A DNA stretch of 64,000 nt from the NCBI RefSeq assembly GCF_000203815.1, contig NW_004457711.1, positions 124,001 through 188,000 of the forward strand. Direction: 5' to 3'. Below, piece by piece: positions 1-64,000 of this stretch (the first letter of the stretch is position 1; the number at the start of each line of letters is the position of its first letter). This DNA is from Cavenderia fasciculata. Taxonomy: Eukaryota; Evosea; Eumycetozoa; Acytosteliales; Cavenderiaceae. A model generated the notes under the pieces. That model was not told where the DNA came from, made no database searches, and was given only the letters and a program-made list of their open reading frames with translations. The position numbers and the translations under genes were made by a program.

Positions 1-1235
1 TTTGTTTTGATTGTCAACGATCCATAATATTGGTGATTCAGATTCTACAAACTTTCTAATCGTGCTTCGTAGTGTAGACGATGGATTAATAATAATTGAT
101 TCATCAATCGCTAATGGATCTTCTGATACTTTAATAAACATTGAAATTGGTTCCAAACATCTATTAAATGTATAAATTGATAATTTCTATAAATAAATAA
201 AATAAAGAAATAATTAATAAAGTACAATAATAATAATTCTTTTTTTCTATTACATACACGTAAATCAGAAGAACTAAAACTACCAATTAAATGACCATCA
301 TCATTGACAACAGCAATCTCTGTAATATGTTCATTATTTAATTTGTGTAGAGCGTCGATTACTTTTTGTGAAGAATTGATGGTAGTGATCGATTTGGAAA
401 GCAGTGACAATGAAGAGAGTGATGCACTTGACTTGTTTCCAAGTGCTTCAATATTGTCATAGATGAATTTAATGACATTTAATCTTGATACAATATCTAC
501 TACAACTGTTTCATTTGACATGATAGCAACTTGTGATACTCGTTGTGTCATGATATGAATTAATAATTGAATTGGTGAATTTACAAATAATGGTACAAAT
601 GGTTCTCTATTATATTCTAGAAAAATGATAGAGAGAGAAAATTAGTATATATATATATATATATATGTACTATGATATATAAGGTTTATAGCTTACTTAA
701 AACTTCAGCAACAGAAGTATTTGGAGCAAATTCATTGGTTGGTTGACTACCAAGAAAACTACAGACATCGACAATTGATAACATGCCAATGTATTGTTTG
801 TGTTGAAGATCGACGACGGGTAGTGAAGTTACATTATTTTCATTCATACGCATCAATGCATAGTCGAGTGTAGACAAACTGTCAATAGTTATTACATTGT
901 GTGTATCGTCACCCAAGATGTATTCAATGAGTGTATTTTGTAATAGATCGACTAGACTGATCGATGCATCGGTCGAATTGGACAATGATCTCGATCGCTT
1001 ATGATTGATTCCTCCAGACGATGATTGTAGTGATGAAGATGATGTAGATTGTTGTTGTTGAAATTGTTGTTGTTGTAACTGTAGTTGGTATTGTCTTCTT
1101 TCGTATTCAAGTATCTGTTGGATTTGGTCGTCTTCTATCGATGTCTTTTTAATCACCCAATAGATAACTGCTCCTGCTGCTCCACTTGCAAGTATCTTTA
1201 CTAATGTATTTAATGTACCTGATGTTATTAATGAC
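1..1235 (-). CDS. CBS-domain protein, 3' end outside the window
   Basis: Three exons are visible on the minus strand: 697-1235, 258-616 and 1-186, with introns 617-696 (GTAAGC...CTAG) and 187-257 (GTATGT...ATAG). The start is the ATG at 1235 (MSLITSG); the frame stays open upstream but has no other good start. A short hydrophobic segment with GAAGAVIYW near residues 18-30 suggests a membrane anchor, followed by a Gln/Ser-rich linker. Then come repeated CBS-like units: one around the motif LPVVDLQHKQYIGMLSIVDV and one around ITEIAVVNDDGHLIGSFSSSDLR, so tandem Bateman modules as in SNF4/AMPK-gamma-like nucleotide sensors. The C-terminus is missing. Family membership is seen in sequence; ligand and function are inference. 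Confidence 0.8.
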
Positions 1236-1380
1236 ATCTTTTTAAATAAATACAAATAAATATAAATAAATAAATAAATTAAAGTGGATGGATCGGTTGT
1301 TGGTCTTTGCAAAGTTTATATCTTCACTACTTTTTAAAAAAAAACATTTATTTTATTTTTTTTTGTAGAATCTATCTATC

Positions 1381-2952
1381 TTAAGAGGATGGAGGACCAC
1401 TATTATTATTATTTTGATTATTATTTTGATTAATATTAATATTTGGACAATAATCAGCAAGACATTCAATATGACAATCTTGAAGAGTATTATTATGTTT
1501 TGCATTGATGGCATGTTTTTCGTGACCGTCCATTGATTCGACGGTGAGAGCAAAACCAGTTGGTAATAGACCAGGTGTTGACATTGGTATACGTAGCCAT
1601 TGGCCAGAATTGTGTTCATCAAATTTCTCTGTTGCATCTACTGGTATCCATCCATGTGTAGAATCATAAAACTCGGCAATGCAATGTGATCCAAACTTTT
1701 TGGTATGTGCATCCAAACATGGATGGAATAGTCTACGAGCTGGTATACCTGCACTTCTACACAACATTACAAAAAAGAGTGCATGTCCTCCACACTCTAC
1801 ATATCTGAATCCACTTGATAGATATTGTTCAAGTGTAGGCCATTGCATACCAGGTTTAATCATTTCATAAGGTATATCACCAACCCATCTAGCTATTACC
1901 TTTGCTTTTTCTAATATTGTATAATTTTCTTTACCTCTTAATATTTCATTTCTAATTTCAATTATCTAAATATATAAAATAAGTATATTTAATTGGTATC
2001 TTTTTTTTGTGTGATTATTTATCGACCTTTGTTTTACCTTTGGATGAAATGGATCAATTTTAGCAGAAGTATGAGTTGTAATACCAAGATATTGAGATGG
2101 ATCATCTTTTGATAATTCCCATTGATCATTATAATGATTTGATGTTATTGGTTGTGGACTAAAGAATATATCCAAAGCATAGGTGATGGATGATGGAAGT
2201 GGACGAGGTAATTGTAAAGCAATATAGGTATTACAATTTCTATTGTATTTACCCAATATAGTGACACCTTGTTGTGGTGATAAAACATAAAAACTACCAT
2301 GACGTTGGAATGGCCTGTCTGGTGGCAGAATTAATTCTAAATTACCATCAGACATTAAATCACGATCGTTTGTAATAGGAGTACTCCATTGTAATCTTAA
2401 AACTTTAGAGACATTAAAATGATGATTAAGTGGTAATGATTTAATCTCTAATGATTGTTGTTGTAAATGTTGTGTTGATGATTCTAATATATCTATAATT
2501 CTTTGTCCATTCTCTGTTGGTTTTCTAAAGTTTCCTGGTTTTCTAAATAAAATAAAAAATAATTATTATTAATAACCTTTGTTTATAACATATATATCAA
2601 GTTGTTGTTTTATCATATATATATATGTATACCTAAAATCCCAACCACCAATACGACCTTGTTGTTTATTTACCCAAAAAACCCATTGTAAATCAGTATT
2701 GTGAAGTACAGTAAGATAGATATGACCATTGCCAATGACGGTTGCATCTTTGATACCTTGAAATGGACCAAAATTGAGTGACTGATTAAAGAATGATTGA
2801 ATTTGATCTTTGTTCATATTAACATTGGTTAGTTTGGTTGCTTCTTCAAAGTTGGCATGACAACAATGCAACATAAACGTTGATACTATATCTAATTCAC
2901 GATGACCTGTTGGTCTTCCCAAAGGTGCTAATTGTTTATGTTTGTTTGTCAT
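1381..2952 (-). CDS. transglutaminase-like fold protein
   Basis: Three exons (2633-2952, 2038-2542, 1381-1965) give a 469-aa protein; introns 2543-2632 and 1966-2037 keep phase. The first exon starts MTNKHKQLAPLG. The C-terminal third holds the cysteine-histidine-aspartate triad expected of the transglutaminase/PNGase superfamily: Cys in YVECGGHALFF, His in GSHCIAEFYD and Asp in GWIPVDAT, in the usual order and spacing. The tail is Asn-rich. The large N-terminal part is not recognised. Family knowledge suggests a cysteine hydrolase or transferase acting on amide bonds, but classical PNGase zinc cysteines were not seen, so the substrate is unknown. Confidence 0.75.
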
Positions 2953-3436
2953 TTTTAAAAAGAAAGAAATAAATAGAGAGAGAGAGAGATGATAATAAAG
3001 TTGTTTATAACTATGTATATATCTATCTAGGTATGAAATAGTAACTATAACTAATTAGTTACAAACTCATATATATTCCTTCCTTGCAGAGGTGGTAATT
3101 CATTAATTTACTTGAAAATATGAATTTTCTTTATAAATTTAATTTAATTTATCTTAAAGATTCTTCTTGATTGTGTGCTTTCGAGAATATATGTATTATC
3201 AATCACTCATATCTATCTATCTATCTATCTATCTATTTTACTTAAATTTAAATGATTGATTAACTTGACCAAAGCTTTGTGACTTGTTTGTCACCAATGG
3301 TGACCTCTGTCATAGAAAAAAATAATAACCAAAAATCGAAAAATTGTGTCGCTCAAAACGAACGACAGTTTGAATATTATTATTATTGTTGTTGTTTTGT
3401 AAATAGAGTTTAAATATATAGAGATAAATAAATAGG
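2953..3436. other. divergent intergenic region
   Basis: AT-rich spacer between two genes transcribed away from each other. It holds a GAGA run near 2975-2990, a short TCTA microsatellite at about 3212-3236 and a less AT-rich patch at about 3290-3370 that includes TGTCGCTC and AACGAACGACAG. It must contain both promoters; no coding sequence was seen. Confidence 0.6.
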
Positions 3437-4002
3437 ATGGGTCAATCAGTTTGCAGTAATAGAAGATTAAGAAATGTCAGAGTCAAGAGACAAAAGACTA
3501 AAGTATTTGAAGCTAATAGATTGAAAGATATTACCGATAAACTCGCAAAAGAACTTTCAGATCAATCTGGTGCTGAAGGTTAGTAGTACTATATAGTTTA
3601 AATATTTTAACAACAACAGTAGAGGATATACTATAGGTAGACTGCTAGTACTATACTATATATATGCTCTCTTTTATTGTTAGAAAAAAAAAAAAAAAAA
3701 AGAACAATCAACCGATCGATGACTTATACCATTTCAAATCTCATCGTTTATCCAATATCATATCTATAGCATTAAACATTCCACCAGAAATCCAAGCTTT
3801 ATCAATGCAAATCGACAAAAATAAACCAACTCCAGTTGATGACTCTGACGACGACGATGTATCAATGGACAAACCAAAGAAGAACAAAGTTGCAATTAAA
3901 AAGAAGTCGATAAAGAAGAAGAAATTGAACAGTAGACAAAAATCAAGAATTCAAGGTATCCATAGTGCTCAAAAGAAGGGTACTCAATTGCTCAAACATT
4001 AA
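3437..4002 (+). CDS. LLPH/YBL028C-like ribosome biogenesis protein
   Basis: Two exons, 3437-3578 and 3770-4002, joined across an intron with GTTAGT donor and CTATAG acceptor (phase 1), give 124 aa. The N-terminus MGQSVCSNRRLRNVRVKRQ is basic and resembles the start of the LLP-homologue/DUF2423 family (yeast YBL028C, human LLPH), nucleolar proteins of about 110-130 aa linked to 60S assembly. The middle has an acidic DDSDDDD patch, and the C-terminus is Lys/Arg-rich (KKSIKKKKLNSRQKSR), fitting nucleolar RNA binding. The length matches the family. Assignment rests on the N-terminal motif, basic tail and size, so it is probable rather than certain. Confidence 0.65.
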
Positions 4003-4525
4003 TAAATCAAACATATATATATATAATAATAATAGTCCTATTATTAGTTTTCTAAAAAAAATAATAATAATAATAATAATAATTATTGATAACAAAAAGT
4101 CAACAATTAAGATTAGATAGATAGGATAGATAGATAGATTTATGATTGATTAATATTGGTTGAGTGTTGTTGGTTGGGTGGGACTACAGATAAAAATATA
4201 AATATATAATTAAAATCGGTTCATTCACTGAGAGGTGAGGAGGAGTTGGAGGTGAAAAGTTTTAAAAAAGATCTTCGAAACTCAAACTCTTATTATTAAT
4301 TAAAGTAAAGGTCTTTGCTCATGATAATAAATTTATTATATCATCATTAGAGAGAAAAGAGAAAGAGAAAAGAGAAAGAGAAAAGAGAGCAAAGGAGGAG
4401 ATCAACTAGTCTACAACAAAGATTATAATCAATCATCACAGAGAGATAGAGAAGGAGAAGAGTCATTAAGGCAAACAGTTTAAACTGTGTATATATATAT
4501 ATAAACAAACAACTTTTATCATATA
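4003..4525. other. intergenic region upstream of ARL1
   Basis: AT-rich spacer with A-runs, a GATA microsatellite near 4110-4138, and GAGAAA purine repeats at about 4350-4400. It contains the 3' end of the upstream gene and the ARL1 promoter. No coding sequence was seen. Confidence 0.6.
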
Positions 4526-5520
4526 ATGGGTATGTAGTCTCCAAATCATCATATTGTACTTCTTCTAAAAAGGATGACAAACCTGATGGTGTAACAACTA
4601 CTCCTAAAACAACAACCAACCAAAAAAAAAAGAAAGAAGATCCATCAGACAATTACAAGAACATTGACATAATAGATAATATACAAACAACAACTAATCA
4701 TCAATATATATATATATAACTATTTAGGTAATCTATTCTCATCGATGTTCTTTAGATTATTTGGTAATAAAGATGTTCGTATTCTTATATTGGGTTTGGA
4801 TAGTGCAGGCAAAACTACTATATTATATAAATTACAATGCGGTGAAGTCTTAACAACTATACCTAGTATGTACGATTATTGATAGCAGACAGACAACACA
4901 CATCATCATTGTTGTTTGTCTGTCAGATGACAATATATTAGAATGAAACAACAACAACAAGACACTAACAACCAACCAAACCATCAATCACATATTAAAC
5001 TATAATAATAGCTATTGGGTTCAACGTCGAGACTGTATCATATAAAAATATTAGATTCCAAGGTTTGTATAATAGAGAAAAGAAAGAAAGAGATAGAAAT
5101 GATAAAGATGGATGGATGGAAGGATGTTTGTTAACACTTTTATATATTTGTTGATGTTTAGTTTGGGATTTAGGAGGACAAAGTGCGATAAGGCCATATT
5201 GGCGTTGTTACTATCCAAATACAAATGCAATTATATATGTAGTGGATAGTAGTGATCCAGATAGATTGGGAATAGCCAATGAAGAGTTGGTGGCAATGTT
5301 ATCAGAGGAGGAACTAAAGACGACTCCTCTTTTGGTATTTGCAAACAAACAAGATCTACCCGGTGCATTGACAGAGGCACAGGTATCAGAAGGCTTAAAA
5401 CTAAGTCAACTTAAAAATAGACAATGGTCGATCGTAAAGACATCTGCCATTAAAGGTGTTGGTTTATATGAAGGTTTGGATTGGTTAGTAAATATCATTT
5501 CTTCTGGTGCTGCTGGTTAA
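4526..5520 (+). CDS. arl1: ADP-ribosylation factor-like GTPase ARL1
   Basis: Four exons (4526-4529, 4728-4865, 5012-5062, 5162-5520) give a 183-aa small GTPase. Exon 1 is only ATGG; joining to GTAATC gives the myristoylation-type start [14 protein letters not shown]. Nucleotide-binding motifs are intact: [10 protein letters not shown] (P loop), the TIGFNVE switch I, WDLGGQ (switch II), NKQD and TSA. The stretch [19 protein letters not shown] is diagnostic of ARL1 rather than ARF1. ARL1 acts at the trans-Golgi, recruiting GRIP-domain golgins. Intron 1 (4530-4727) contains a perfect 128-bp copy of coding sequence from the gene at 62 kb; the donor GTATGT is made of four intron bases plus the first two bases of that copy. 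Confidence 0.95.
4534..4661 (+). repeat. 128-bp perfect copy of exon sequence inside ARL1 intron 1
   Basis: Base-for-base identical to 62168-62295, including a run of ten A residues, in the same orientation, 57.6 kb away. At 62 kb the segment is in-frame coding (begins VVSKSSYC, ends PSDNYK); here it lies in an intron. Flanks on both sides are unrelated, and there is no obvious target-site duplication, poly-A tail or terminal repeat. Confidence 0.95.
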
Positions 5521-5952
5521 CAAATAATAATAATAATAATAATAATCTTTATAGGATATATATTAAATAATAATAATCAAAATAATAATAATAATAATAA
5601 TAATAACTATAGTAATAATAATAATAATAATAATAATGAATAGAGAGATTGGGCATACATATTTTTAAACAACAACAAAAAAAAAGAGGCACTATCAATA
5701 ATATCATATGATACCAAACTTTATTCATCGAATTTCCAATCCCCCCCAACTACTACTTACATCCATCATCATCATCATCATCTTTATCTTTTACCAAACC
5801 AATTTAAATATTTACAACATGATCACATATAAATTTCATTAAAGCAATACTCTACTATAAAAAGTATTTGTCTTTTTAAAAACTAGATTAGATATATTTG
5901 CAATCTTCTTCGATCAACAATCAAATCGATTTCATTTTTTTTTAAAAATTTA
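5521..5952. other. intergenic region downstream of ARL1
   Basis: Made mostly of AAT and ATC trinucleotide repeats (about 5527-5638 and 5760-5782) and A/T runs. Contains the 3' UTR of ARL1; no gene seen. Confidence 0.6.
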
Positions 5953-6176
5953 ATGTACAGGGGTTGTTGAGACGATCATCAGTTTTCTATTCCGAAGGTA
6001 TTCACAATCACCATTGGTGGTTTATGTTTTGTATCAAAGAGAATGATAATGATACTAATCAGTTTATTCCTATTCTTTTATTTTTCTTGGATTTATTAGC
6101 AACACACAATGAGATGGAATGGGAAGGAGTACCCGCACAACCAACAATACCAAATGTTATTGTTAACATCAACTAA
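5953..6176 (+). CDS. possible small mitochondrial protein, start unresolved
   Basis: Two coding-like blocks, 5961-6030 and 6100-6176, are joined by an intron-like stretch 6031-6099 with a GTATCA donor, a long pyrimidine tract and a TTATTAG acceptor. Phase is kept (T plus CA), giving LLRRSSVFYSEGIHNHHWWF then MFSTHNEMEWEG and a short tail. Arg/Ser-rich onset and tryptophans resemble tiny inner-membrane subunits of respiratory complexes, but I do not recognise a family. The nearest ATG (5953, MYRG) lies in another frame, separated by a run of four G. Either a first exon is upstream and unseen, or the G run has a one-base error. Could be a chance ORF. Confidence 0.35.
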
Positions 6177-6279
6177 AATACATATTTACATGTGATCACA
6201 TAATTAATAATTAAATAATAATCAAATAATCAATAATAATAATAATAATGAATATTTAGCAACTATTAATAATAATTAT

Positions 6280-6429
6280 ATGACATTTTTCAAGTTATTA
6301 ATCATGGAACCACTTACCAAAACATTCGTCAGATCTGCACTTTCATCAATCTCTTCTTTTGTAGGAGTATCTAATTTGAAAAAGAGTGATGATCAATTAA
6401 TAATCATCAATAATCCTACTACTACTTCA

Positions 6430-6461
<32 letters not shown>

Positions 6462-7986
6462 GACTGCAGTTGTAGATAGAACCATTCAAATCATCAATGA
6501 AAAAGGTGAAATGAAACCATATGTAGTTCCAATGTATGTTGAAAAGACAATTATCTATCAATTGTGTCAATCTTATCAACCGGCTAGAAAGGATCTATCG
6601 ATGGTATGTTGGCGTTGGCATAGAATGGTACAACAATTCAACTCGGATTTGGGATCGGTCAAACTTACCGATAGGGTTGAACAGTCGATACGTCGTGCCA
6701 ACATACTCAATGAAACGACCAATATGTTTCATATGGGTGTCTCCAAGATCATAGTACCATGTTCATTCTTTTCAACGGTCAAGAATATTGTATTTGCCAC
6801 CACCTCACTACGTTCACTAGAGGTTAGTTTTCTTCCAAAGGATTTCAGTCGCCGTGGAGGTGTCAAAACATCAATCGACCATTTTGGAGAGTTCCTCGAT
6901 CGTCTAGAGGAACATCAAATTAAAAGACTTTGTTTCAAATCAAAGATTACTATTGTTAATTATGACTTTTCCAGTCTCAAATATTTGTTGGGTCACAAAT
7001 GTTTTGCATCATTACAATCTTTTAAAATGGAGATGGCTCCACCTCGTTTTGCTGTACTGTCAGAGTACCTCCCATTCAACCATCTCGTTCATCTACATCT
7101 AGATGTTAAACCATCGGTTGATAACTTTCAAATCGATTTGATTTGTATTCTAACGTGCCCGTCGGTCATTGACAATCTTGAGACACTCTATCTCAATGAA
7201 CACAATCATGTCCCATGGACTATGTTGTCGGGGCATACCTTTAAAAAGTTGCATACCTTTGGTATCACCAATCCAAAGATTAAACAGTCACAAGGGTTTA
7301 TTGATTTTGTCAAGTTACAAACATCCATCCAAAAACTAGACACTGTCATCTACTCGCAACAAAGAACGTATCCAATCTTTTTGCAATCTAATATCACTGA
7401 TTACAGTGTTCATTTTGATTACATTGTTCCTGCGTTCCATGCGAACATTCAAACTATGCATGTCGACTTTCTATACAACCGTGAAGCATTTACCACATTC
7501 TTTGGTGCCAGTGCTGACGTTCTCCCACTCTTGCAAGACCTGACCATTTCGTGTTACTCTATGGCCAATGTTGAGAGAATTGCCGAGTTTATCGATAAAC
7601 ATACCAAGATCTATCGTGTATCGATGCGACACCAAATAGCTACCAAAGAACAAGTACAATCATTCTATTTGACCAATGGTGGGTTCTTTGACACGTTATC
7701 CAAACCAACATCATCGGTACGAGAATTAAAGATCCAAACCTTTTCAAACTTTGAAGATGTCAAACCTCTCATCGAACGTGTCAACAATAGTTCCATCAAT
7801 AGTTTTACATTTTCAATTCCAAAATCACAATCAATCTCTTTAGGTTCAACACCACCAACAACAGACACTTACTACCAAACACTTACTAAACTCTATCATA
7901 TCATCCGTGAAGGCTGTGAATATCAACCATTTCCAATATTTACATTACTTAAAAAACTAAATGATCCTTTTAAAAATATTAAATAA
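6280..7986 (+). CDS. F-box/LRR-like dictyostelid family protein
   Basis: Single-exon gene of 568 aa from the ATG at 6280 (a second Met lies at 6304). After a Thr-rich run encoded by ACT/ACC repeats (about residues 45-62), the segment around LCQSYQPARKDLSMVCWRWH looks like a divergent F-box helix bundle, with the typical late W-R-x-H. The rest is a long series of weak leucine-rich units such as SLRSLEVSFLP, HLVHLHLDV and LETLYLNEHN. This architecture fits the large, fast-evolving dictyostelid F-box-like families that act as SCF substrate receptors. F-box identity is an inference from pattern only; the target is unknown. No introns. Confidence 0.6.
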
Positions 7987-8218
7987 AATAAAACAAACTA
8001 TCAAATTGATATTATTATCCATCTTTTCATCAACGTGCCCGAAAAAAAAAAATTAAAAAAAAAAAAAAAAAATAGAAAAAAAACGAACGAGTCGATTTGT
8101 ATCATTATTTTCTCTTATTATTTAATTGATTTATTACCTCACTCCCTTTATTTATATATATATATTGTATAGTTTATTAAGTTAAACAATACACTAGTAG
8201 AAAGAGAGAGAGAGAGAA

Positions 8219-11128
8219 ATGTCAAGTGGTAATTCAAGAATTATAGATTTACTGCAATTGCAGAATCTAACAAAGAGAGATCCACCTGCCTACAAGGAAG
8301 AGTTTAAACTTCAATATCAACATTATCTTACTCAATTACAAATCTTTCAATTAAAACCAACTAAAGATTTTAAATCTTTCTCTCAATTGGTTAGTTATTT
8401 ATCTCATGTATGTTTAGTTTAAGAAGAAGAAAAAAAGCAGTAGACTTATATAAGTTTATATATTTACAAACAAATCAATCTCTATTTATTTACTTTTATC
8501 TATATATATATATATATATATATTTTAGGTAAGTGCATGTTATCCAGAAGATATGAAAGACTTTCCAAAACAAATATGTGATTTATTAGAGAATAGTTGT
8601 ACCAACTTTGAACCAGAGTTGAGACGTGTATTGGTTAAATCATTGATTTTAATGCGTAACAAAAACATGATGCAACAGATACCGTTGTTGTCTCTCTTTT
8701 TCAAATTGTTCCGTGTACACGACAAACCACTTCGTAAACTTCTCTACTCGTACATTGTCGCCGACATTAAAAATACAAACATCAAGCAAAAGAATGTCAA
8801 ACTCAACAAATCACTTCAAAACTTTATGTTTACAATGATGTCTGATCCTTCTGAAATTGCTACTGTCATGTCTCTCAAAGTTATGATTGATTTATTTAAA
8901 AGAAAGATTTGGTAAATATTTATATATATATAGACATAAAAAATAGTATTCTTTTTTTAAAATAATATTAATAATATTATTTTCTATTTTCTCTATTTTT
9001 TTATAGGCATGATATTAAAACAGTAAATGTAATTGCAAGTGCAGTATTTTCAAAGAATGGTAAGATTGTATCAACTGCATTAAACTTTTTCCTCAAGATT
9101 GATGGTGACAAGACCGACGATGAAGAAAAAGAGGCAGCTGAACGTGAAAAGGAGGCCAAGGCCGAGATGAAGGCTCAATCACTCTCAAACAAGGTCTCTA
9201 AAAAGACACGTTCCGGTAAACGTCGTTACGAAAAGTCAAAGGATAAATTCAAGAAACTCAAGGAACAAAATCAAGGACGTAGCAATCCCAACTTCCCCGC
9301 CATTGAGTTGATCCACGACCCACAGGGATACGCCGAACGTCTCTTTTCTCAACTCCGTCGTTCCACTGAAAAGTATGACAATCGTCTCTTGATGATGAAC
9401 TTTATCGCTCGTCTCGTGTCGACACATAAATTGTTGCTCTACAACTTTTACCCATACATTCAAAAGCTTCTCACACCAAGTCAAAAGAATATCACCTATA
9501 TATTGGCTGTTGCCGCACAGGCCTGTCACGAGTTGGTCGACCCCGACATTCTCAAACCTGTCATTCGAAACATTGCCAAATACTTTGCCAACGATGGGTC
9601 CAACCCAGAGGTCATTGCCATCGGTCTCAACACGATCCGTGCTATCTGCTCGAGAGCTCCACTTGCCATGGAATCGCAGCTCTTGCACGATCTCATCCAA
9701 TACAAGGACAACAAGGAGAAGGGTGTCAAGATGGCCGGTCGTAGTCTTCTCTTGTTCTTTAGAGAGGTTGCTCCACATCTCCTCCCCAAGAAGGAGCGTG
9801 GCAGAGACGGTCACAAAAAGATGCAGGCTCCTGTCCTCCAATTCGGTCAACAAAAGGTTAGTCAAGGTGTCGAAGGTGTCGAACTTCTCTACGATGAAGA
9901 ATTAAACAAAGCTTTGGAGAAATATGAAGCTGGAGAATGGAGTGAAGAAGAAGAAGAAGATTCTGATCAAGAAGGTTGGAATGATGTTGAAGCTTCAGAT
10001 GATCAAGATGATGATGGTGAATGGGAATCTGTCAGTGGTGAAGAAGAAGTAGAAGAAGGTGACCAAGATGAATGGGAATCTGTCAGTGGTGATGAAGATG
10101 ATGATGATGAAGAAGATTGGAAAGATGTTGATGAAGAATTAATAGATCAAATTAATAATGGTGAGTGGGAAGAAGTTGATGAAAATGAAGATAGTGATGA
10201 TGAAGAGGAAGAAGAAGAAGAAGAAGAGGAACAACAAGAAGGAGAAGAAGTTGGTCAAGAGTCATCTGGTGCAGCATTTGAAGGTACTGCCAATATCAAG
10301 GATATGTTAAAGTTACAAGCCAAACAACAAAAACAAATTCAACAAGACAAGCAAGAAATTAACAAAAAGAAACAACAAGAACAATCAAAGAAACAAGTTG
10401 CCACCACTGCTACCACCACCACCAACAACAACAAGAAGAGACAAATTCAAAAAGAGGAAGAATCAGAAGAGGAAGAATCTGAAGATGACGACCAAGATGA
10501 ATGGGAATCTGTCAGTGAAGACGAAGAAGAAGGTGAGGATGATGATGGTGAATGGGAATCTGTCAGTGATGATGAAGAGATCCAACAACAACAACAACAA
10601 CAAGATGAAGATGAAGAAAAAGAAAAGAAAAAACAAGAAGAAAAGAAAAAGAAACAAGAAGAAAAGAAAAAACAAGATGCACTTGACAAGGAAAAGGTTG
10701 ATTTGGACAGAATTTTAACAGACGAGGATTTGGCAAAGATTCAAAAATTGAGAATGATTAAAGATGTCATTGAAAAGAAGCGCAAGATTGAAGATATGGA
10801 TGACCTTGAAGATCAAGGTAGCGATATGGACGACGATGACAATCCACTTGGTATCATTGATCCAGACAATTTGATTGGTGATCACAAGAAAAAGAGACAA
10901 ACCAGACAAGAAAGATTGGATGGTGTCTTGCAAGGTAGAGCAGATAGAGGAGAGTATGGTGCCAAGAAGGCTCGTCGTGAAAAGTCTGGTAACTCTATGA
11001 GAAACGAAGAACAAGCCAAACGTAACAAACCATTCCTTTTGGTTAAACAAGCTGATAGAATTAGAAAGAAACAATTCATGTCTCTCAGAGATAAACAAAT
11101 GGCCAGATCAAAACCAAATGATTATTAA
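8219..11128 (+). CDS. sdad1: SDA1 homologue, 60S ribosome biogenesis factor
   Basis: Three exons (8219-8407, 8529-8911, 9007-11128) encode 897 aa. The N-terminal half matches the SDA1/NUC130 family: LRRVLVKSLILMRNKNM, FRVHDKPLRKLLYSYIVADI and KRRYEKSKDKFKKLK, followed by an armadillo-like region. SDA1 is a nuclear protein needed for 60S export and actin-linked growth control in yeast. The C-terminal third has a long acidic, Gln- and Lys-rich linker in which an EWESVS-type motif recurs at least four times, then a conserved basic tail ending KARREKSGNSMRNEEQAKRN and MARSKPNDY. An AATAAA signal lies just past the stop. The codons of the core exon are clearly richer in C than the linker. Confidence 0.93.
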
Positions 11129-11469
11129 AAATAAATATATATTTTTTTTTAAAAAATACGTTTTCAAGTGAGGTCGATGACCGGGGTTATCCATGACTTC
11201 TTTCTTTTCATATTTATTTATTTTTTATTAAAAAACAACAAATATTTCTAAATTGTTTTGGTGCATTAAATGAAAAGCTATTATTTTAAATAAAGGTTCA
11301 AGGTGAACATACCATTTCAAATAATTAAAGAGAAAAATAGAGATAATATAAATCACACCTAAAACAATTTAGAAATATTTAACCCTCTATCATTTTACCT
11401 TTTACCTATTTTCTCATTTAACAAATCATAAATTTTTTCAGGCATTTACCTTATCTTCTCATCAAATGG
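11129..11469. other. intergenic region with an inverted repeat
   Basis: AT-rich spacer between SDA1 and a microprotein gene. Besides the 11240-11380 inverted repeat it has a stretch near 11390-11410 matching the 5' flank of the second microprotein gene (both contain TCTATCATTTTACCTTTT), showing that the duplicated block begins upstream of the coding part. Confidence 0.6.
11240..11380. repeat. MITE-like element with 24-bp inverted ends
   Basis: Left arm 11240-11263 (AAATATTTCTAAATTGTTTT then GGTG) and right arm 11356-11380 are reverse complements with a single one-base gap, enclosing about 92 bp of non-coding DNA. Both sides show AAC next to the arm, a possible 3-bp target duplication. It could be a miniature DNA transposon or the stem of a structured RNA; no second copy was found in the window. 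Confidence 0.45.
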
Positions 11470-11646
11470 ATGATAACCAACCAAAAAGAAGAAGTACTAA
11501 TGCCTGAATGGCTTTTTGTGCCGATCATGACAGTTAGCACTTTTGGAATTGGACTAGTCTACTACGTATATCTGAAGCATCAACAAAAACTTCGACGAAA
11601 AGATTATCCCTTAAGAGAACCTCTCATCAAGAAACCCAGTCAATAA
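11470..11646 (+). CDS. 58-aa single-span membrane microprotein, copy 1
   Basis: Short intact frame starting MITNQKEEVLMPEWLFVP, with one hydrophobic span (IMTVSTFGIGLVYYVYL, about residues 19-35), then a very basic tail ending REPLIKKPSQ. It is a paralogue of the gene at 14864: both have the N-terminal NQ, the IMTV-T-GIGL span, the YLYLK/YVYLK edge, DY-L-R and the exact ending PLIKKP-Q. Substitutions are scattered and the frame is kept, so it looks like a gene under constraint, not a random ORF. An ATG four bases earlier (11466) opens another frame that stops quickly. Topology suggests a tail-anchored or inner-membrane microprotein. No family recognised. Confidence 0.6.
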   Translation: MITNQKEEVLMPEWLFVPIMTVSTFGIGLVYYVYLKHQQKLRRKDYPLREPLIKKPSQ

Positions 11647-13269
11647 TCTTTTTACTCATCATCCTTGCATCAAAATCTTCAGTTTAAACCCACCAGGGGA
11701 ACTTGGCCACCAATCTCACTCCATACTTTTCAGAAATGAAACTTGGAGGATGTGAAGGAATACAAACCTTTTAAATAAAATAAAACCTTCCTTACTAGAC
11801 AATTAAATTAATTTCCCAAAGAATACTATCATAGTTGGTTTTTAATAGAATAAAAATGGAAAAATTAAATATATACTTCCATACGTGGATATATACATGT
11901 TAGAAAGGAGGAGCCAGGATGATGGAGAGTCGTTCGTTAGTCATTCAGCAGACATTAGTTAGTCACTTATTCACTCATTCACTATCATACACCACAATTT
12001 ATTTATTTACCAATAAACCATTTTTTCAATTTGATTTAATATACGAAAATATATTGTTGATGGATGCCAAGACAAGGGTTGTTCGTACATCAAACCACAG
12101 GTTTAATTGTTGGATCTCCAATTATCATCATAATTTTGTTATGGGTGACGAGTAAACCCCAAACTGATTATTGATTGTCTTCAATTTGAACCGTTAACTG
12201 TTTCTATACCAGTTTGATAATTATTGGTCATAGTTTGAGGGGTGATCTGCACTCGACCCCTCAAAAATAGGAAAAAGAGAAGGGAAATAATGGATAATAA
12301 AACCCCACCAGCCTGATTGTTGATAGTCCTTCAAATTGAATCTTACTCTTGTTTTTAACTTTGAAGTGTTGACATTTAGCCACCAAGGTTTAATTATCAT
12401 TTCTTTTTATTTATTATTTTTTTTCTCCCAATATTATTTATTGAGTGCATGTAGATCAACTTATTTCATTAAATAGTCTCATCATAAAAAAAAAAATAAT
12501 AGTAATAATAATATTAATATACTTCAAAATGTCATACTAGTCTGTAGTTACTATTTTTAATGCTATTTGTTATTTTCTTTTTGCCATTTACATGACACTG
12601 AAAACACTCTTCTAATGGTCAAATCACCAGCAGTCTAATAAGTGTTTCAAGTTTGGGTTAGTTCTTAGAATGATCAGCAATATCAGCAGTTCCGGTGGGC
12701 ATCATGGAGTGTGTGGCTTTTTATCAAGATATACCCAATAGATACAAACCAACATTTCAACTTGTCTTCATGATCTTATGGATTGTACAAATTATTTCCA
12801 TTGATATAAAAAAATATTCAGACAAGATAAATCCCAAATAATCAATATTTAATAATTACTAATAACTTTTAATATAATTAATATATAATAATAATTAAAT
12901 AATATATTTGAAATAATCAATAAGAATCAATAATAATCGATAAATAAAATTTTTCTTCGTTTATCATTAATTTTATTTATTTTCTCTTTTTTGCCAATAT
13001 CAAGACTTCAATAATAAACTTTAATCTTTTTTTTTTTTTGACAGTTTCAAGGATCAAAACTAATTAAATTAAATTCTACCTCCTCAAACAATTTTAAAAT
13101 GTAAATTATAATAATTTTTTTTATCATTCTAATCTCTACTTGTTATTACTTTTACCAATGTCACTTTTTTATTAAATAAAAATCTAGCTTTGTTCTTACT
13201 TGTTGTAGGTACAATAGTAAGACTTTCATTTAGTAATTTACTTTTTTTTTTTTTCTTTTTTTTTCTTTA
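11647..13269. other. 1.6-kb spacer present only in copy 1 of the duplicated block
   Basis: No convincing gene. The corresponding interval in the second copy of the block is only about 30 bp (15056-15087), so this DNA was either inserted here or deleted there. It contains a hairpin at 12234-12265 and two diverged direct repeats beginning near 12154 and 12301 (AAACCCCA...CTGATT.TTGAT..TC.TTCAA). A 78-aa ATG-initiated frame at 11919-12155 lacks coding character. The last 400 bp are AT-rich. Confidence 0.5.
12234..12265. other. perfect 9-bp stem hairpin
   Basis: TTTGAGGGG (12234-12242) and CCCCTCAAA (12257-12265) are perfect reverse complements around a 14-base loop. Unusually GC-rich for this spacer. 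Function unknown. Confidence 0.5.
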
Positions 13270-14586
13270 TTATTCCAAATCAAAAAAAGATAAAGGTGAA
13301 ATAGTTTTAACTATATTAAATAATTGATTTAAATCTTGTTGGTTGTTATTCATTGATTTTAATAGGTCGATAGTTTGTTTATAGATTTTTTGAAAAGCAG
13401 GGGTGTTGCCGTAAAGCTTTGGGTATGGAGTCATGGTTGTGGTAGTGTGAGTGTTTGGAGATTGAGCCAAAAGTTGATCGCCACATTTTTGATTTAACGA
13501 ATCAATCGCTTCAAATTGTTTGGCATTAAGCCAATTGATAAATGCAAATCGATAAAAATAGAGAGTAATATTATCCATTCCTTCCAATGGTAATTGAGAG
13601 AAATAAAACTTTGTTTTGCCTCCTTTTGGACAATATTGTATCCATTTGATAAGTACAAGTAATCCAAGGTATTGATTTTGAGGGGTATTTAACACGAGAT
13701 GATTAGCCAACCATTCCAATACATCTCCACGACCACTATAATACAAGTTATCGAGTACCTTTGAAACCTTTTCAACTGTTGGAGTATCTAGTACATTGAA
13801 TGTGTAAATGTAATAGTCTCGAGAGGCAACCAATTCAGCATGAGTTGTAATACGTTGATCCCAAGGACAATAATCGAGAACGTTTCTGTCATTTCCAGGT
13901 GACCGATAATAATCAGCAGGAGTAATCGAACCAAACCCCTCGAATTGTTTCTTGTGCTTAAAGATAATCTCGAGGTATTCAATTGGAGAGACATCAGTCT
14001 TTGCTAAAAAATTGAGTAATACATTGATTGGTTGTTGAACTTGATCTTTACCATTTCGACGATGAATCGTATTTTCCATAAATACTTTAAAGTAGGCAAA
14101 TGAAAAGTGTGGATGTGAAGCCAACTCTAGATCAATACAATTGTTGAGCAACTTTTTTCTACAAGCCATCTCCATCGTCTCCTTGTCTTGAATCAAGTTG
14201 TAAATGGTTGATGAACTACCTATGAAACGTGTATAACAGTATGACGATTCATCAGCCGTACTTGTATTAAGTGAAAATGTATACTGATCAATATTGGTAA
14301 TAGACACATCATTGTATTGAGGATTGAGGTGTTTGATGACTAGTTTCATGAGACAAGGTGTAAGCATTTGACTATAATGAGTCAATGTTCTTGTCTCTAC
14401 CAAATTGATTATATCTTTAAAGTTGTAACATTGTGACTTTTTTGCATTCCAATACTCCAAGTATATAGTTCTAACCCATCCAAATATAGTCTTGAATAAA
14501 TATCTATTTTGTATTAAAACTAATTTAAATAGTTTTTCAAATATTAATAATTGATCATTATTAAGAAGAAGAAGAAGTTGAGTCAT
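13270..14586 (-). CDS. uncharacterised dictyostelid family protein
   Basis: Single-exon gene of 438 aa. The start was set at the ATG at 14586 (MTQLLLLLNNDQ) because the decayed neighbour copy keeps the same start sequence; the frame is open further upstream. The protein is helical-looking with repeated patterns such as CIDLELASHPHFSFAYFKVF, VLEWLANHLVLNTPQNQYLG and YFYRFAFINWLNAKQFEAID. This arrangement resembles the dictyostelid proteins with degenerate ankyrin-like or F-box-like helical repeats that occur in large lineage-specific sets. I cannot assign a function. It converges on the microprotein gene at 11470 in the duplicated block. Confidence 0.6.
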   Translation of the reverse strand: MTQLLLLLNNDQLLIFEKLFKLVLIQNRYLFKTIFGWVRTIYLEYWNAKKSQCYNFKDIINLVETRTLTHYSQMLTPCLMKLVIKHLNPQYNDVSITNIDQYTFSLNTSTADESSYCYTRFIGSSSTIYNLIQDKETMEMACRKKLLNNCIDLELASHPHFSFAYFKVFMENTIHRRNGKDQVQQPINVLLNFLAKTDVSPIEYLEIIFKHKKQFEGFGSITPADYYRSPGNDRNVLDYCPWDQRITTHAELVASRDYYIYTFNVLDTPTVEKVSKVLDNLYYSGRGDVLEWLANHLVLNTPQNQYLGLLVLIKWIQYCPKGGKTKFYFSQLPLEGMDNITLYFYRFAFINWLNAKQFEAIDSLNQKCGDQLLAQSPNTHTTTTMTPYPKLYGNTPAFQKIYKQTIDLLKSMNNNQQDLNQLFNIVKTISPLSFFDLE

Positions 14587-14863
14587 TGCAGTATATAAAT
14601 AAATAAACATGTATAAATATATAAATATATATATTTGATGAACAATGAACTTCACACAAGTGCCACATGCTCGGTAAAAAGCGGAGTTGTATTAAAAAAA
14701 AAAAAAAGTAACAATAATTTAAATAATTTCAAAAATTCTCATAAAAATTAAGGCAGTTCCAAGGTCAAGCGTCTTCCAACAAGGTATTATTAATTATTAA
14801 TTTTTGTTTTTTAATTCACCAAATCATATAAAATATTTCAAGATTCTATCATTTTACCTTTTC

Positions 14864-15055
14864 ATGGATAACCAACCAAAACAAAAAAACAAAGTAAAAG
14901 AAGAATACCCTTTTCATTGGACACAACTGGTAATAATGACAGTGGGTACACTTGGAATTGGACTAGCTTGCTACTTATATCTGAAGAGTCATCGAAAGGA
15001 AATGCAAGAAGATTATCTCTTAAGGAAACCTCTCATCAAGAAACCTCGTCAATAA
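14864..15055 (+). CDS. 63-aa single-span membrane microprotein, copy 2
   Basis: Starts MDNQPKQKNKVKEEYPFH at the ATG at 14864, then a span WTQLVIMTVGTLGIGLACYL (about residues 19-38) and a basic tail ending RKPLIKKPRQ. Upstream codons of the same frame have no ATG. Paralogue of the 58-aa protein at 11470, about 3.4 kb away, with similar 5' flanking sequence. The hydrophobic span and the PLIKKP-Q end are the best conserved parts. Function unknown. Confidence 0.65.
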   Translation: MDNQPKQKNKVKEEYPFHWTQLVIMTVGTLGIGLACYLYLKSHRKEMQEDYLLRKPLIKKPRQ

Positions 15056-15087
15056 TAATCTTTTATTTTTTTACTTTATTTTTCTTT

Positions 15088-15458
15088 TTTTTTCTTTATT
15101 ATTCCAAATCCAAAAATGATTAAGGTGATATAGTTTCAACTATATTAAATAATTGACTTAATCCTTCTTCTTCTTGTTGATTGTTATTATTCATTGATTT
15201 TAATAGTTTATAGATTTTTTGAAAAGCAGAAGTGTTGCCGTAAAGTTTTGGTTGATGTGTTTGAGCCAAAAGTTGATCGCCACACTTTAGATTTAACCAA
15301 TCGATTGCTTCAAATTGTTTGGCATTAAGCCAATTGATAAATGCAAATCTATAAAAATAGATTGATTGATAAATGCGAATCACTATAGTTTTTAATATAA
15401 TATTAATTTATCGATCATTATTAAGATGATGAAGAGGAAGAAGAGGAAGTTGAGTCAT
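15088..15458 (-). pseudogene. collapsed copy of the 13270 gene
   Basis: Minus-strand remnant keeping both ends of the 438-aa neighbour gene but lacking most of the middle. The 5' end (ATG at 15458, MTQLPLLPLHHLNND) stops after a few codons. The 3' part still matches FAFINWLNAKQFEAID, KCGDQLLAQ, LYGNT-AFQKIYK, LKSMNNN and LFNIV-TISP. About 1 kb of coding sequence is missing. Homology continues past the start codon into the 5' flank (GAACAATGAACTTCACA), so the duplication included upstream DNA. Confidence 0.8.
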
Positions 15459-15611
15459 TTTTGAAATAATTAACGAAATATAGATATAGAAACAGATATA
15501 TAATATAATCTATCTATATTTTGAACAATGAACTTCACAAGTGTCTAAATTTTACCTTTTCCTTTTTTTTTATTTATTTACATTTTATTAGTTACTATTA
15601 TCTACTTTACT

Positions 15612-16519
15612 TTACTTATTTTCTTTATTAATACGGAATGAATTAAAAAAGTCTAATTCATGGAAATGCATATCACCACAGATAATAAAGGAATGAAGAG
15701 GAGCACCGAAATCGATGCTGACGAGTTCCTTCATGGTGCCGGTGATGACTTGTTGGTCGTCTTGACCGACACGAGCCATACCGACACAAAGAGTATTCTC
15801 ATCGTACACCTTTTCACCACGAATATCTTCAATCTCTAACAATTGCTCCGCACATTGATTGACGGTCATGAATCTAGGTGGTTCGTAGACCTTGCGACCA
15901 CGCAACATGTTTTCAATGGTTTGTTCTTTCACCTTGATATCCAACAGACAGAGTGTGTGTAGACCAGCTTGACGATTCGATTTGACACGATCATAGAAAC
16001 TATCTGGTTTGTAGGTATCGGTAAAGAATACCATTGAAATCGTCTGTCCAAACGTATACAACTGTAATCCACAACATCCAACTGCATTCATAATACTTGC
16101 ATTGTGTACAATCTTTACTGTTATATTTAATTCTTTTGCTCTCATTATTAAATCTGTATGTGTTGTTGCTCTAAAAATATAAACAAACAAAGTATAAAAG
16201 TAAGTATTAATTCTTTTTCTTTTTACTTTTTCTCTGTTTCTCTCTCTTACCCAAAAGGATCACCAACAACTAAAAAAGAAACATCCATAGTTTTAGATTC
16301 TTCCAACATTCCTTCACAACCAGATTCAACAAATTCACGATCAGCCAATATTAATTGCTTTCCATAGAATGCTTCCATACGTTCGACACTTGTCGATCCT
16401 CCCAAAAGAGATGTATAAAACTCCAAGTATACCTTGGCCGATGATTTAACTGCTTCTAATCCTTTAATTGTAATATCTTTTTCATCTCCTAATCCTAATC
16501 CAACAACATATAGTACCAT
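15612..16519 (-). CDS. dph5: diphthine methyl ester synthase
   Basis: Two exons (16251-16519 and 15612-16170), intron 16171-16250, give 275 aa, the usual DPH5 length. The N-terminus MVLYVVGLGLGDEKDITIKG is the signature of the SAM-dependent tetrapyrrole-methylase fold; GDPFG followed by ATTHTDL spans the intron (glycine codon split). Further family motifs are VKIVHNASIMNAVGCCGLQLY and FGQTISMVFFTD. DPH5 methylates the histidine-derived intermediate on elongation factor 2 during diphthamide synthesis in the cytosol. No missing key residues were noticed. Confidence 0.95.
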
Positions 16520-16769
16520 GTTTTAAATCGGTCTTTTTTAATATATATCTAATGTAATAATGAAAAACGAACGAATGATGAATACTTATTTGATGAGTAA
16601 TTTTTTTTCGTATTTTTTTTTTTTTTTTGAACTTGTTTTTTTTTTCATGTTCAAAGGCTCATGAGATAGCTCCTATCTCTCTCTACTTTTGTAAATCTAC
16701 TGATAGTTCTTTCCTCACAATATTTATATATATATATATTTATATCTAAAGAAGAAGAAGAATACAAAG

Positions 16770-18456: not shown

Positions 18457-18590
18457 AAAAAAAAAATAAAACTTCAATAAATAAATAAATATAATTTAAA
18501 AAGACAAAAAGAAAAAGGTATACTTTTTTGATTTTCCCTCTCTTTTTTTTTTTTTTTTAAACCTCATTCCCTTTATACATGTAGTACAGA

Positions 18591-20385: not shown

Positions 20386-20475
<90 letters not shown>

Positions 20476-20561: not shown

Positions 20562-20793
20562 ATTATTAAAAACACTTGTATATACAGTTCTTAGAGTAGA
20601 TTGAGTTTTATAAAAGTTTTTCTTTTTTATGAATTATTGGTCGATAAAAAAAGACATCTCTAAAGAAGAATTGGATAAACCTCTTAAATAATAATAAATT
20701 AGCACAATTAATTAATCTTAATTAAATAAATAATCTTTAGAATCAAGTATTATTATTGTTATATATCTAATTTCCAAAACTCTTAATTTATAT

Positions 20794-24162: not shown

Positions 24163-26651
<2,489 letters not shown>

Positions 26652-28779: not shown

Positions 28780-28819
28780 TCAATAAAAAACCAACTACTA
28801 CTTTTCCTTTTTTATTTTG

Positions 28820-33879: not shown

Positions 33880-33910
<31 letters not shown>

Positions 33911-38865: not shown

Positions 38866-38926
<61 letters not shown>

Positions 38927-40381: not shown

Positions 40382-40433
<52 letters not shown>

Positions 40434-42672: not shown

Positions 42673-42738
42673 AAATATAATAATAATATAAAAATAATTT
42701 TTTCTTTTCTTTTCTTTTCTTAACTTTTTTTCTTTATA

Positions 42739-62068: not shown

Positions 62069-64000
62069 ATGTATAGATGTGCTGCAACTGCTTCAAAGCA
62101 GCGTATTAATAGTTTGGTTGCAAGTCAAGTAACAGCTACTTTGACTGGTACCAAAGGAGGTTCATTGGTAGTCTCCAAATCATCATATTGTACTTCTTCT
62201 AAAAAGGATGACAAACCTGATGGTGTAACAACTACTCCTAAAACAACAACCAACCAAAAAAAAAAGAAAGAAGATCCATCAGACAATTACAAGAATCTTT
62301 TAAAGAATTTTGAACAAAGATTAGATACTAAAAAAGAAGATCAACAAACAACAAAAGATCAACAACAACAACCACAACAATCATCGTCATCATCAAAAGA
62401 ACAACAATTACAAAAGACATCAGACAAACCATCACTTAAAAAGATATCAAATATTCCAGCATTTGATGCAAGTTTTGCATCTTACAATGGTGGTGGTTTG
62501 GGCATGTATATGGCCGAGCAAGAGGCTGATGAAGATACTGCTGCCGACGAAGAGTTTGATATTGAAGAGTTTAAAAACATGAGATTCAACGAACACGAAG
62601 ACGTGATTATCGAGGATGTCGAAGACGAGGATATCATGATCGAAGACTATGAGTTGGATCGTGACGACTATGGTGGTGACATTGTCGACGACCTCTTGGA
62701 GGAGAGTCAAGCCATCGAATATGAAGAAGATGGTGAGGACGGTGACGGTGTTAAATTGTCCAAGGGCGACGAGGCAGACTTGGACGAGGACGCCGACGAC
62801 GACCAAGACGAAGAGTTTATCGATGAATACGAAGAAGATGATGACGAGTTGGACGACGAACTCCTCGACGATGCCGACAATGATGGCGATCTCATCGGTG
62901 AAGAGCTTTTGGACAAGGAGTTGGACAAGTTGTTGTCAAAGAAGGATCAAGAGTTTGCTATGGCCGAGTTTGACAATATCCAAGAGGAAGAAGACGACGA
63001 GCCACAAGCCGAGTTTGAAATGCAAGATATGGACGAAGCAGCCGAGTTGGAAGTAGAAAGAGCCACAGAAGACGACGATGAGGATGTTGTCGTGCCACAA
63101 GATATCGCCGAATATCTTGACCTCGAGGATTTGGACCGTCAAAACCTCTTTACTCATACCGAAAATCTTGAACTATTCATGAAGAATTTCGATGGTGAAG
63201 AAGGTATCTTGGAAACACTCGAAAATGAATTAAGACAAGATGGAAAACAAGAAGTCGACGAAATCGATCAAGACGACGACGATGAAGATGATATGATTCA
63301 AGTAGAGGAAGAGATTGACTTGGAAGAAATCGAGGAAGATGAAGAGGATGAGGGTTTGGAGATGGACGACGATTTGGAAGAGTTTGATGAAGATGGAGAG
63401 GAAGAGGTAGACTATGATAATCTGTCCGATGAAGAGACCGATCTTGCTGTCCGTGCCGAATCATTGATCAAGGATTTGCCAACACTGCCATTCCACGAAG
63501 AACTTGCTATTGCCCAAGAAGAGGGGTTGACTCCATTTGACCAACGTTCGGCCGACTATGGTAAGCTGACCAAGGACAAGATGCGTGTATTCACCAAGAA
63601 CTGGGAGCAAGGTCTTTTGCAAGACTCTCTCGAGACCTTGTTTGCCGATGACATGGCTCAACTTGCCAGCACACAGGATCCTAGCAAGGTGCCATACATC
63701 TTTGACCCCAAGCTCATCAAAGAGTACAACGACGACGTCAACGAAAAGTTGGGAGACCAGTTCCTCGAACACCACCAACGTCTCGAGCTTGTCCAAGAGC
63801 TCATTGACGCCGACCCCGAGGACTCGCCAACCATCGAGGACTACATAAAGTTGGAGCAACACCAAGACCAAGACCAAATCGCGTTGCCAGAGTCTGCCAA
63901 GCAAAAGGCCAAGCTCAAGGCACTGCTCACCAAATACTCGGTCGAGGAAACCAAGGCTATCGTCCAAGACAACATTGCTGGAAATGATGCATTGGATGCC
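62069..64000 (+). CDS. very acidic protein with mitochondrial-type N-terminus, 3' end outside window
   Basis: Open from the ATG at 62069 to the window edge (at least 644 codons, no stop). The start MYRCAATASKQRINSLVASQ is basic with no acids for about 40 residues, fitting a mitochondrial presequence. A Lys/Thr/Gln/Ser linker follows, then several hundred residues dominated by Asp and Glu in blocks such as DDDQDEEFIDEYEEDDDELD. Toward the edge the sequence becomes more ordinary: DKMRVFTKNWEQGLLQDSLE and VPYIFDPKLIKEYNDDVNEK. No family recognised; an organellar ribosome or nucleoid protein is possible. Purine repeats (AGAGAG) end just before the ATG. Residues 34-75 correspond to the 128-bp segment that is duplicated in ARL1 intron 1. 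Confidence 0.8.
   Translation, partial: MYRCAATASKQRINSLVASQVTATLTGTKGGSLVVSKSSYCTSSKKDDKPDGVTTTPKTTTNQKKKKEDPSDNYKNLLKNFEQRLDTKKEDQQTTKDQQQQPQQSSSSSKEQQLQKTSDKPSLKKISNIPAFDASFASYNGGGLGMYMAEQEADEDTAADEEFDIEEFKNMRFNEHEDVIIEDVEDEDIMIEDYELDRDDYGGDIVDDLLEESQAIEYEEDGEDGDGVKLSKGDEADLDEDADDDQDEEFIDEYEEDDDELDDELLDDADNDGDLIGEELLDKELDKLLSKKDQEFAMAEFDNIQEEEDDEPQAEFEMQDMDEAAELEVERATEDDDEDVVVPQDIAEYLDLEDLDRQNLFTHTENLELFMKNFDGEEGILETLENELRQDGKQEVDEIDQDDDDEDDMIQVEEEIDLEEIEEDEEDEGLEMDDDLEEFDEDGEEEVDYDNLSDEETDLAVRAESLIKDLPTLPFHEELAIAQEEGLTPFDQRSADYGKLTKDKMRVFTKNWEQGLLQDSLETLFADDMAQLASTQDPSKVPYIFDPKLIKEYNDDVNEKLGDQFLEHHQRLELVQELIDADPEDSPTIEDYIKLEQHQDQDQIALPESAKQKAKLKALLTKYSVEETKAIVQDNIAGNDALDA
62168..62295 (+). 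repeat. source copy of the 128-bp segment found in ARL1 intron 1
   Basis: In-frame coding DNA beginning at a codon boundary (GTA GTC TCC), identical to 4534-4661 over 128 of 128 bases. Because this copy has a coding role and continuous frame, it is taken as the origin and the intron copy as the derivative. Confidence 0.95.

What the first reader, a model, noticed from the sequence alone, without database searches (positions are those of the whole stretch)
4534..4661. Perfect 128-bp exon copy lodged in the first intron of ARL1
Positions 4534-4661 and 62168-62295 are identical over 128 bases, in the same orientation, 57.6 kb apart. The source is protein-coding; the target is an intron that starts four bases earlier, so the spliceosomal donor GTATGT is half intron, half copy. 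No poly-A tail, terminal repeats or target duplication is visible, which argues against retroposition or a transposon and for templated repair or template switching. Zero divergence, even in a ten-A run, implies a very recent event, a converted pair, or an assembly join. If real, it shows how exon fragments seed introns in dictyostelids, and it makes ARL1 pre-mRNA carry a sense piece of another mRNA.
Basis: seen in the sequence. Interest (0 to 1): 0.75.

Follow-up and report, generated by a model that had tools for sequence, protein, structure and literature searches.

The report
Exon fragment copied into ARL1 intron
In a social amoeba genome, a 128-letter piece of one gene's coding sequence has been copied, letter for letter, into an intron of a gene 58,000 letters away, most likely as a patch during DNA repair; this is a known type of mutation caught soon after it happened, with no sign so far that the copy does anything.

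Summary
4534-4661 equals 62168-62295 over 128 of 128 bases, same strand, 57,634 bp apart; a whole-assembly search (30,995,898 bp, 21 contigs) found these two places only. The target lies in intron 1 (4530-4727) of an ARL1-type GTPase gene; the donor lies in the 5' part of an open 1,514-aa frame. GC, frame and, more weakly, coding score favour exon to intron. Best reading: a recent templated-sequence insertion (class-2 TSI-like repair patch or template switch) into an intron that probably already existed. The idea that it shows how exon fragments seed introns is not supported: the 70 nt outside the copy have ordinary intron length and a complete-looking 3' end. Intron birth in one step is not excluded. 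A partial survey of 258 kb found two more near-identical exon-fragment copies, 92 bp from 1.6 kb away and 364 bp from another contig, so this looks like one case of a recurring process. A coding-sequence-derived intron is already reported in D. discoideum (PMC4683709). New member of a known kind; moderate interest. No sister genome, reads or RNA data could be examined.

The parts
4526..4529 (+). Coding exon 1 of the ARL1-type gene (ATGG; phase-1 intron follows)
4530..4727 (+). Intron 1, 198 nt, GTATGT...TATTTAG
   Evidence: given by the second version of my gene finder (the first version, called 4538-4588 an exon); splicing gives MGNLFSS...
4534..4661 (+). Copied exon fragment, 128 bp, 100% identical to 62168-62295
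4530..4535 (+). Donor splice site GTATGT; its last two bases (GT) also belong to the copy (2-bp overlap)
   Evidence: GTATGT is the commonest donor, 99 of 514 predicted introns
4662..4727 (+). Remaining 3' part of the intron: ACTAAT at 4693-4698 (branch-point-like, motif recalled), (AT)n, TTTAG acceptor
   Evidence: CTAAY occurs in the last 60 nt of 98 of 514 predicted introns
4728..5520 (+). Rest of the ARL1-type gene: exons 4728-4865, 5012-5062, 5162-5520
   Evidence: joined by me; the gene finder ends the last exon at 5473 and runs on into the next gene; Pfam Arf E 1.3e-74
62168..62295 (+). Donor segment, codons 34 to 76 (last partial) of the donor ORF
62069..64000 (+). Donor gene, part inside the window (1,514-aa frame; its second exon ends 2,694 bp beyond the window); acidic protein with a presequence-like N terminus (inference)
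   Evidence: no Pfam family at E<=0.01

Best explanation
A 128-bp stretch from the 5' coding part of one gene was copied once into intron 1 of an ARL1-type gene 57.6 kb away, after the fourth base of the intron. The donor stayed intact. Shown: exact identity, two places only in the assembly search, an open donor frame, and no visible retroposition or transposon marks. Inferred: a break, or a stalled fork, near the start of ARL1 was patched by copying from the donor locus (DNA template switch or SDSA, polymerase-theta-type or NHEJ patch; a cDNA patch is not excluded), with a 2-bp GT overlap on the left. Inferred: the intron existed before. The extra length is presumably spliced out, so the insertion was tolerated; if retained it reads ATG GGT ATG TAG and stops at once. 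No function is proposed for the copy.
For: Identity and two places only. Direction: with the donor gene left out of training, ARL1 intron 1 ranks 5 of 514 predicted introns for best sense coding segment, in the donor's frame, and falls from 10.0 to 2.7 without the copy; GC of the copy is 32.8%, of the rest of the intron 18.6%, mean intron 25.1%, mean CDS 36.3%. Of the three sense frames only the donor's is open through the copy; the other two hold 2 and 4 stops. 128 is not a multiple of 3, so insertion into a coding exon would need a compensating change. Without the copy the intron has an ordinary length. Two similar near-identical copies: C11:116522-116613 against C11:118116-118207 (91/92) and C11:221185-221548 against C8:836368-836731 (361/364). 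Class-2 TSIs in human cells have the same anatomy: no target duplication or poly-A, donor intact, 73-414 bp in the experimental set (PMC5110952, passages). D. discoideum has NHEJ factors and a polymerase theta gene (PMC8529158, passages); this genome was not searched for them.
Against: No empty-site allele, sister species, reads or RNA data could be examined, so insertion and splicing are not shown directly. A junction microhomology cannot be told from a 2-bp chance match. The antisense coding score of the same intron (10.7) is as high as the sense one, and eight other introns score higher antisense, so the coding score is supporting, not decisive. DNA and RNA templates are not separated. That the intron is older is an inference: two Arf-family paralogs in the same genome have no intron at this point, and the whole intron is flanked by a 4-bp GGTA repeat, a length reached by 14 of 514 predicted introns. 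Both other targets are called partly exon by my gene finder, so they are not plain noncoding parallels.
Confidence: 0.78

Rival explanations
1. Intron birth: the whole 198-nt intron 1 arose in one repair event at ATGGGTA, with the exon copy as the main patch, extra filler, and GGTA duplicated at the two ends.
For: 4-bp GGTA repeat at the intron ends; 14 of 514 predicted introns reach 4 or more. Arf-family paralogs in L025 and L028 lack an intron here. Direct repeats flank 43% of gained Daphnia introns (PMC3443670, passages). A coding-sequence-derived intron is reported in D. discoideum (PMC4683709 section 8).
Against: 66 nt of the intron look like a finished 3' intron end (ACTAAT, AT-rich, TTTAG), and no source for them was listed (which scored 39 of 389 candidates and skips simple repeats, so this is weak). 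Splice consensus inflates short flanking repeats, and in Drosophila conserved introns are flanked as often as gained ones. The paralogs are distinct Arf-family genes, not orthologs.
Confidence: 0.1
2. Reverse direction: the segment began in the ARL1 intron and was copied into the 5' coding region of the donor gene.
For: Identity alone has no direction; the donor N terminus is low-complexity and might tolerate an insert.
Against: GC, coding score, only the donor's sense frame stop-free, length not a multiple of three; a presequence-like SSYCTSS segment inside it (motif recalled).
Confidence: 0.06
3. Assembly or cloning artefact: a chimeric read or join placed the exon piece in the intron.
For: 100% identity; the second copy is on the same contig.
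Against: The sequence returns to the same intron after 128 bp, so two precise joins would be needed. The two other pairs carry substitutions (1 in 92, 3 in 364). The published D. fasciculatum assembly used dideoxy and 454 reads, a fosmid map and primer walking (PMC5282741, passages); that this is that assembly is inferred.
Confidence: 0.04
4. Sub-variant of the best reading: a cDNA patch, i.e. reverse-transcribed donor mRNA filled the break.
For: Human class-2 TSIs are argued to be derived from RNA (PMC5110952, passages). The donor segment lies in one open frame, so a cDNA would look the same.
Against: No poly-A and no target duplication, though class-2 TSIs lack these too. Two of three donors found lie on the same contig, 57.6 and 1.6 kb away, which suits a DNA template, but the third is on another contig and n is 3.
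Confidence: 0.25

Closest known systems
Class-2 templated sequence insertions / TSIPs (human; PMC5110952, passages seen)
   Same: Short copy of an intact distant sequence, no target-site duplication, no poly-A; inferred break-repair patch; 128 bp lies inside the 73-414 bp of the experimental set
   Different: Polymorphism not shown here; amoeba, not human; break not observed; template DNA or RNA unknown
Fourth intron of D. discoideum DDB_G0273471, derived from the 3' coding sequence plus UTR of DDB_G0267666 (PMC4683709, section 8 read)
   Same: Coding sequence of another gene inside a dictyostelid intron; no short direct repeats reported at its boundaries, none seen around the copy here
   Different: There the search required 80% coverage of a newly gained intron; here the copy is 128 of 198 nt (65%), 100% identical, and the intron is probably older
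[quoted passage not shown] reviewed in PMC3443670, passages)
   Same: Sequence from elsewhere between splice sites; a short direct repeat (GGTA) at the intron ends
   Different: No evidence that the intron itself is new; 14 of 514 predicted introns have such a repeat

Membership tests
Class-2 templated sequence insertion | Copy templated from a distant locus, donor intact | tested here: met
   128/128, donor frame open over 1,514 aa, two places in the assembly search
Class-2 templated sequence insertion | No target-site duplication, no poly-A tract | tested here: met
   flanks read by eye: GTAT before and CATT after the copy
Class-2 templated sequence insertion | End-joining marks at junctions (microhomology, microdeletion, added bases) | tested here: inconclusive
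   only a possible 2-bp GT overlap; no empty site available
Class-2 templated sequence insertion | Insertion polymorphic or absent in relatives | not testable with these tools
   no relatives held for G000 (note)
Intron gain by double-strand break repair | Intron absent from outgroups | not testable with these tools
   no orthologs held; two Arf-family paralogs lack it, four other loci scanned gave no readable 5' end
Intron gain by double-strand break repair | Short direct repeats at intron ends above background | tested here: inconclusive
   GGTA, 4 bp; 14 of 514 predicted introns reach 4 or more
Intron gain by double-strand break repair | Source found for most of the intron | tested here: inconclusive
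   128 of 198 nt (65%); no source listed for 4662-4727 (39 of 389 candidates scored)
Retroposition / processed copy | Poly-A tail and target-site duplication | tested here: not met
Introner or DNA transposon | Multicopy unit with terminal repeats | tested here: not met
   two places only in 30,995,898 bp; no terminal repeats seen by eye

The most novel reading that the evidence does not exclude
Intron 1 of this ARL1-type gene is a newborn spliceosomal intron made in a single repair event, caught with its coding-exon source still 100% identical 57.6 kb away, in a genome where exon fragments are patched into other genes and their flanks often enough (three near-identical copies seen in 258 kb) to make the supply of raw material for introns directly measurable.
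Probability: 0.1. Interest if true: 0.75.

Novelty: new member of a known kind. Interest (0 to 1): 0.38.

Why it matters
A recent templated insertion with both donor and target known is useful because the sources of new or changed introns are rarely found (PMC4683709, section 8). If the rate seen here holds, long-read resequencing of strains would give a direct count of how often coding fragments land in introns, and how often they create, lengthen or break them. For ARL1 itself nothing seen here suggests more than a harmless lengthening of an intron.

Tried and rejected
Chance similarity: rejected (E 5.7e-61). Transposon or introner: rejected, two places only. Special RNA structure of the intron: no support (z -0.61). 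Rfam: 0 families at gathering threshold in the whole window; ARAGORN: 0 tRNAs. Pfam for the donor protein: 0 families, so its function stays open. Sense transcript acting on the donor mRNA: same strand, so no pairing; not pursued.

Hunt for other exon copies in long introns: 85 predicted introns of at least 140 nt gave 104 low-complexity-masked segments; I kept 75 of at least 60 nt, leaving out the contig start and the ARL1 intron (8,518 nt), and sent 60 of these 75 whole (6,566 nt). 40 of 60 candidates were scored. All 46 C11 matches lie at the segments' own places, and 6 of the 60 segments did not return even their own place, so the search is about 90% sensitive at best. Matches elsewhere came from segments 1-3 only, dispersed or contig-end repeats.

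Arf paralogs as a test of intron age: six loci scanned for a P-loop, two gave a readable 5' end, both without the intron; four did not resolve. Cis-only donor preference: considered after two pairs, dropped when the third donor proved to be on another contig. Intron positions of ARL1 in the literature: the PMC8358228 passages seen (12 of 13 places) treat four ARF subgroups and give no ARL1 intron positions. Paper search for Cavenderia fasciculata + insertion + intron: 0 papers. A paper search for the sequencing method gave nothing of use.

Full report
What is there. The two 128-base stretches are identical; the whole-assembly search found these two places only, in 30,995,898 bases and 21 contigs; the window is C11:124001-188000. 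Size and gene content fit Cavenderia (Dictyostelium) fasciculata; the 31-Mb figure is recalled, PMC5282741 gives 25 supercontigs (passages) against 21 contigs here, so the species is an inference. The copy starts at base 5 of a 198-nt intron (4530-4727) in an Arf-family gene; the spliced protein of 183 aa matches Pfam Arf at E 1.3e-74. The donor segment is codons 34-76 (last partial) of a 1,514-aa frame that runs beyond the window.

Gene models. I wrote a small hidden-Markov gene finder and ran it on C11:1-258000, i.e. the window plus L003-L022. The second version predicts 84 genes and 514 introns, median 84 nt, 25th-75th percentile 69-117; 7.6% are 199 nt or longer. It over-calls introns in noncoding stretches and runs genes together (ARL1 with its downstream neighbour, for one), so these figures are approximate. 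The first version called part of the copy (4538-4588) an exon, as a recent exon fragment might provoke. The second gave the intron as I read it, 4530-4727, but put a 48-nt intron at 62223-62270 inside the donor segment; the frame is open through it and the first version has no intron there, so I take it as false, without RNA evidence. GTATGT is the commonest donor, 99 of 514; GTATCA, which would be left if all 128 bases were simply removed, occurs in 0 of 514. A 2-bp GT overlap at the left junction, leaving GTATGT, is therefore the simplest reconstruction of the old site; it is inference.

Direction. The copy has GC 32.8%, the other 70 nt of the intron 18.6%, predicted introns 25.1% and CDS 36.3% on average. 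With the donor gene left out of training, ARL1 intron 1 ranks 5 of 514 for best sense coding segment (10.0), in the donor's frame, and scores 2.7 without the copy; but its antisense score is 10.7, and eight other introns score higher antisense, so I count this as supporting only. Of the three sense frames only the donor's is free of stops. Together with the length, not a multiple of three, this favours exon to intron.

Old or new intron. For an older intron: the residue is of ordinary length and has a complete-looking 3' end. For a new one: a 4-bp GGTA repeat at the intron ends, reached or exceeded by 14 of 514 predicted introns, and no intron at this place in the two Arf-family paralogs whose 5' ends could be read, out of six loci scanned (L025, L028). 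No ortholog is held here, so this stays open; I put birth at about 0.1.

Is it alone? Self-comparison of the 258 kb (words of 20, at least 90% identity, low-complexity filter) listed 16 pairs. Two have sharp ends and unrelated surroundings on inspection: the ARL1 pair, and C11:116522-116613 against C11:118116-118207, 91 of 92, where the donor is coding sequence of a NAD_binding_4 (thioester-reductase-like) gene and the target lies at the 5' end of a release-factor-like gene (name recalled). A third is a 183-bp tandem repeat at the contig end. The other 13 I took, from position, as tandem, internal or paralogous repeats (several are seen as such) and did not inspect one by one. Whole-assembly searches were made with window 1-20000, 20001-40000, 50001-64000 and 5 of the 20 fetched C11 loci L003-L022 (L012, L013, L014, L017, L019); window 40001-50000 and 15 loci were not sent. 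Each of these searches scored 39 candidates out of 109 to 602, and and 46 gene families or simple repeats filled the list, so misses are likely. One more case appeared: C11:221185-221548 against C8:836368-836731, 361 of 364. The donor there is taken to be C8, where the stretch lies in the coding 3' part of a DUF3818 (PX-protein) gene. The target joins the end of a gene-family homology at L019:3548/3549; the other end falls in a (TTG)n run present on both sides. My gene finder calls most of both these targets exon, as it did with part of the ARL1 copy, so whether they lie in coding, intron or flanking DNA is unsettled. In those lists I saw no further match of at least 95% identity and 60 bp other than simple repeats ((AAT)n, (TTG)n; letters checked).

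Meaning of the count. Three in 258 kb would be about 360 per 31 Mb (hand calculation; Poisson 95% limits about 74-1,050), but the ARL1 pair was the reason for looking, so two is the fairer count, and the trans search was incomplete. Long introns themselves yielded no second exon copy in the 60 segments tested. Two of three donors are in cis. I draw no conclusion about template or distance from n = 3.

Mechanism. Shown: a faithful copy with open donor frame, without visible poly-A, terminal repeats or target duplication. Inferred: patching of a break or a template switch. D. discoideum has NHEJ components and a polymerase theta gene (PMC8529158, passages); I did not test this genome for them. 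Human class-2 TSIs have the same anatomy and are attributed to break repair with RNA-derived or DNA patches (PMC5110952, passages).

Against what is known. The kind of mutation is known. For dictyostelids, PMC4683709 (abstract and section 8 read) found sources for two gained D. discoideum introns, one of them 3' coding sequence plus UTR of another gene, and noted that the proposed models did not account for them. The present case is a younger relative of that observation, with the difference that the host intron is probably older. I found no paper on this particular copy in the listings of searches, in one open-access library; subscription journals are mostly not held.

Noticed in passing
C11:116522-116613 (L014:6522-6613) and C11:118116-118207: 92-bp near-identical copy (91/92) of a coding segment of a NAD_binding_4 gene at the 5' end of a release-factor-like gene, same strand, 1.6 kb apart; my gene finder calls most of the target exon
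   Followed up: partly
L019:3185-3548 (C11:221185-221548) and C8:836368-836731 (L036:1501-1864): 364-bp near-identical stretch (361/364): 3' coding part of a DUF3818 gene on C8, joined on C11 to the end of a gene-family homology
   Followed up: partly
window 53737-53910: Noncoding-looking stretch 83% identical to C21:377932-378120; no Rfam match up to E 1 in 53500-54100
   Followed up: partly
C11:297-663 (L003): 183-bp tandem duplication, 98.9% identical, near the contig end
   Followed up: no
C11:2989-4188 (L003): Dispersed repeats near the contig end, with matches of 79-94% (first segment) and 75-90% (second and third) on other contigs, some near contig starts
   Followed up: no
window 4490-4503 and 4704-4718: (TA)n runs on both sides of the inserted copy; possibly fragile sites, not tested
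   Followed up: no
window 33975-38134 and 41202-42099: Large gene family: the 62 matches listed are 68-86% identical, with a cluster on C17:384000-447000; a tandem relative lies in the window
   Followed up: no
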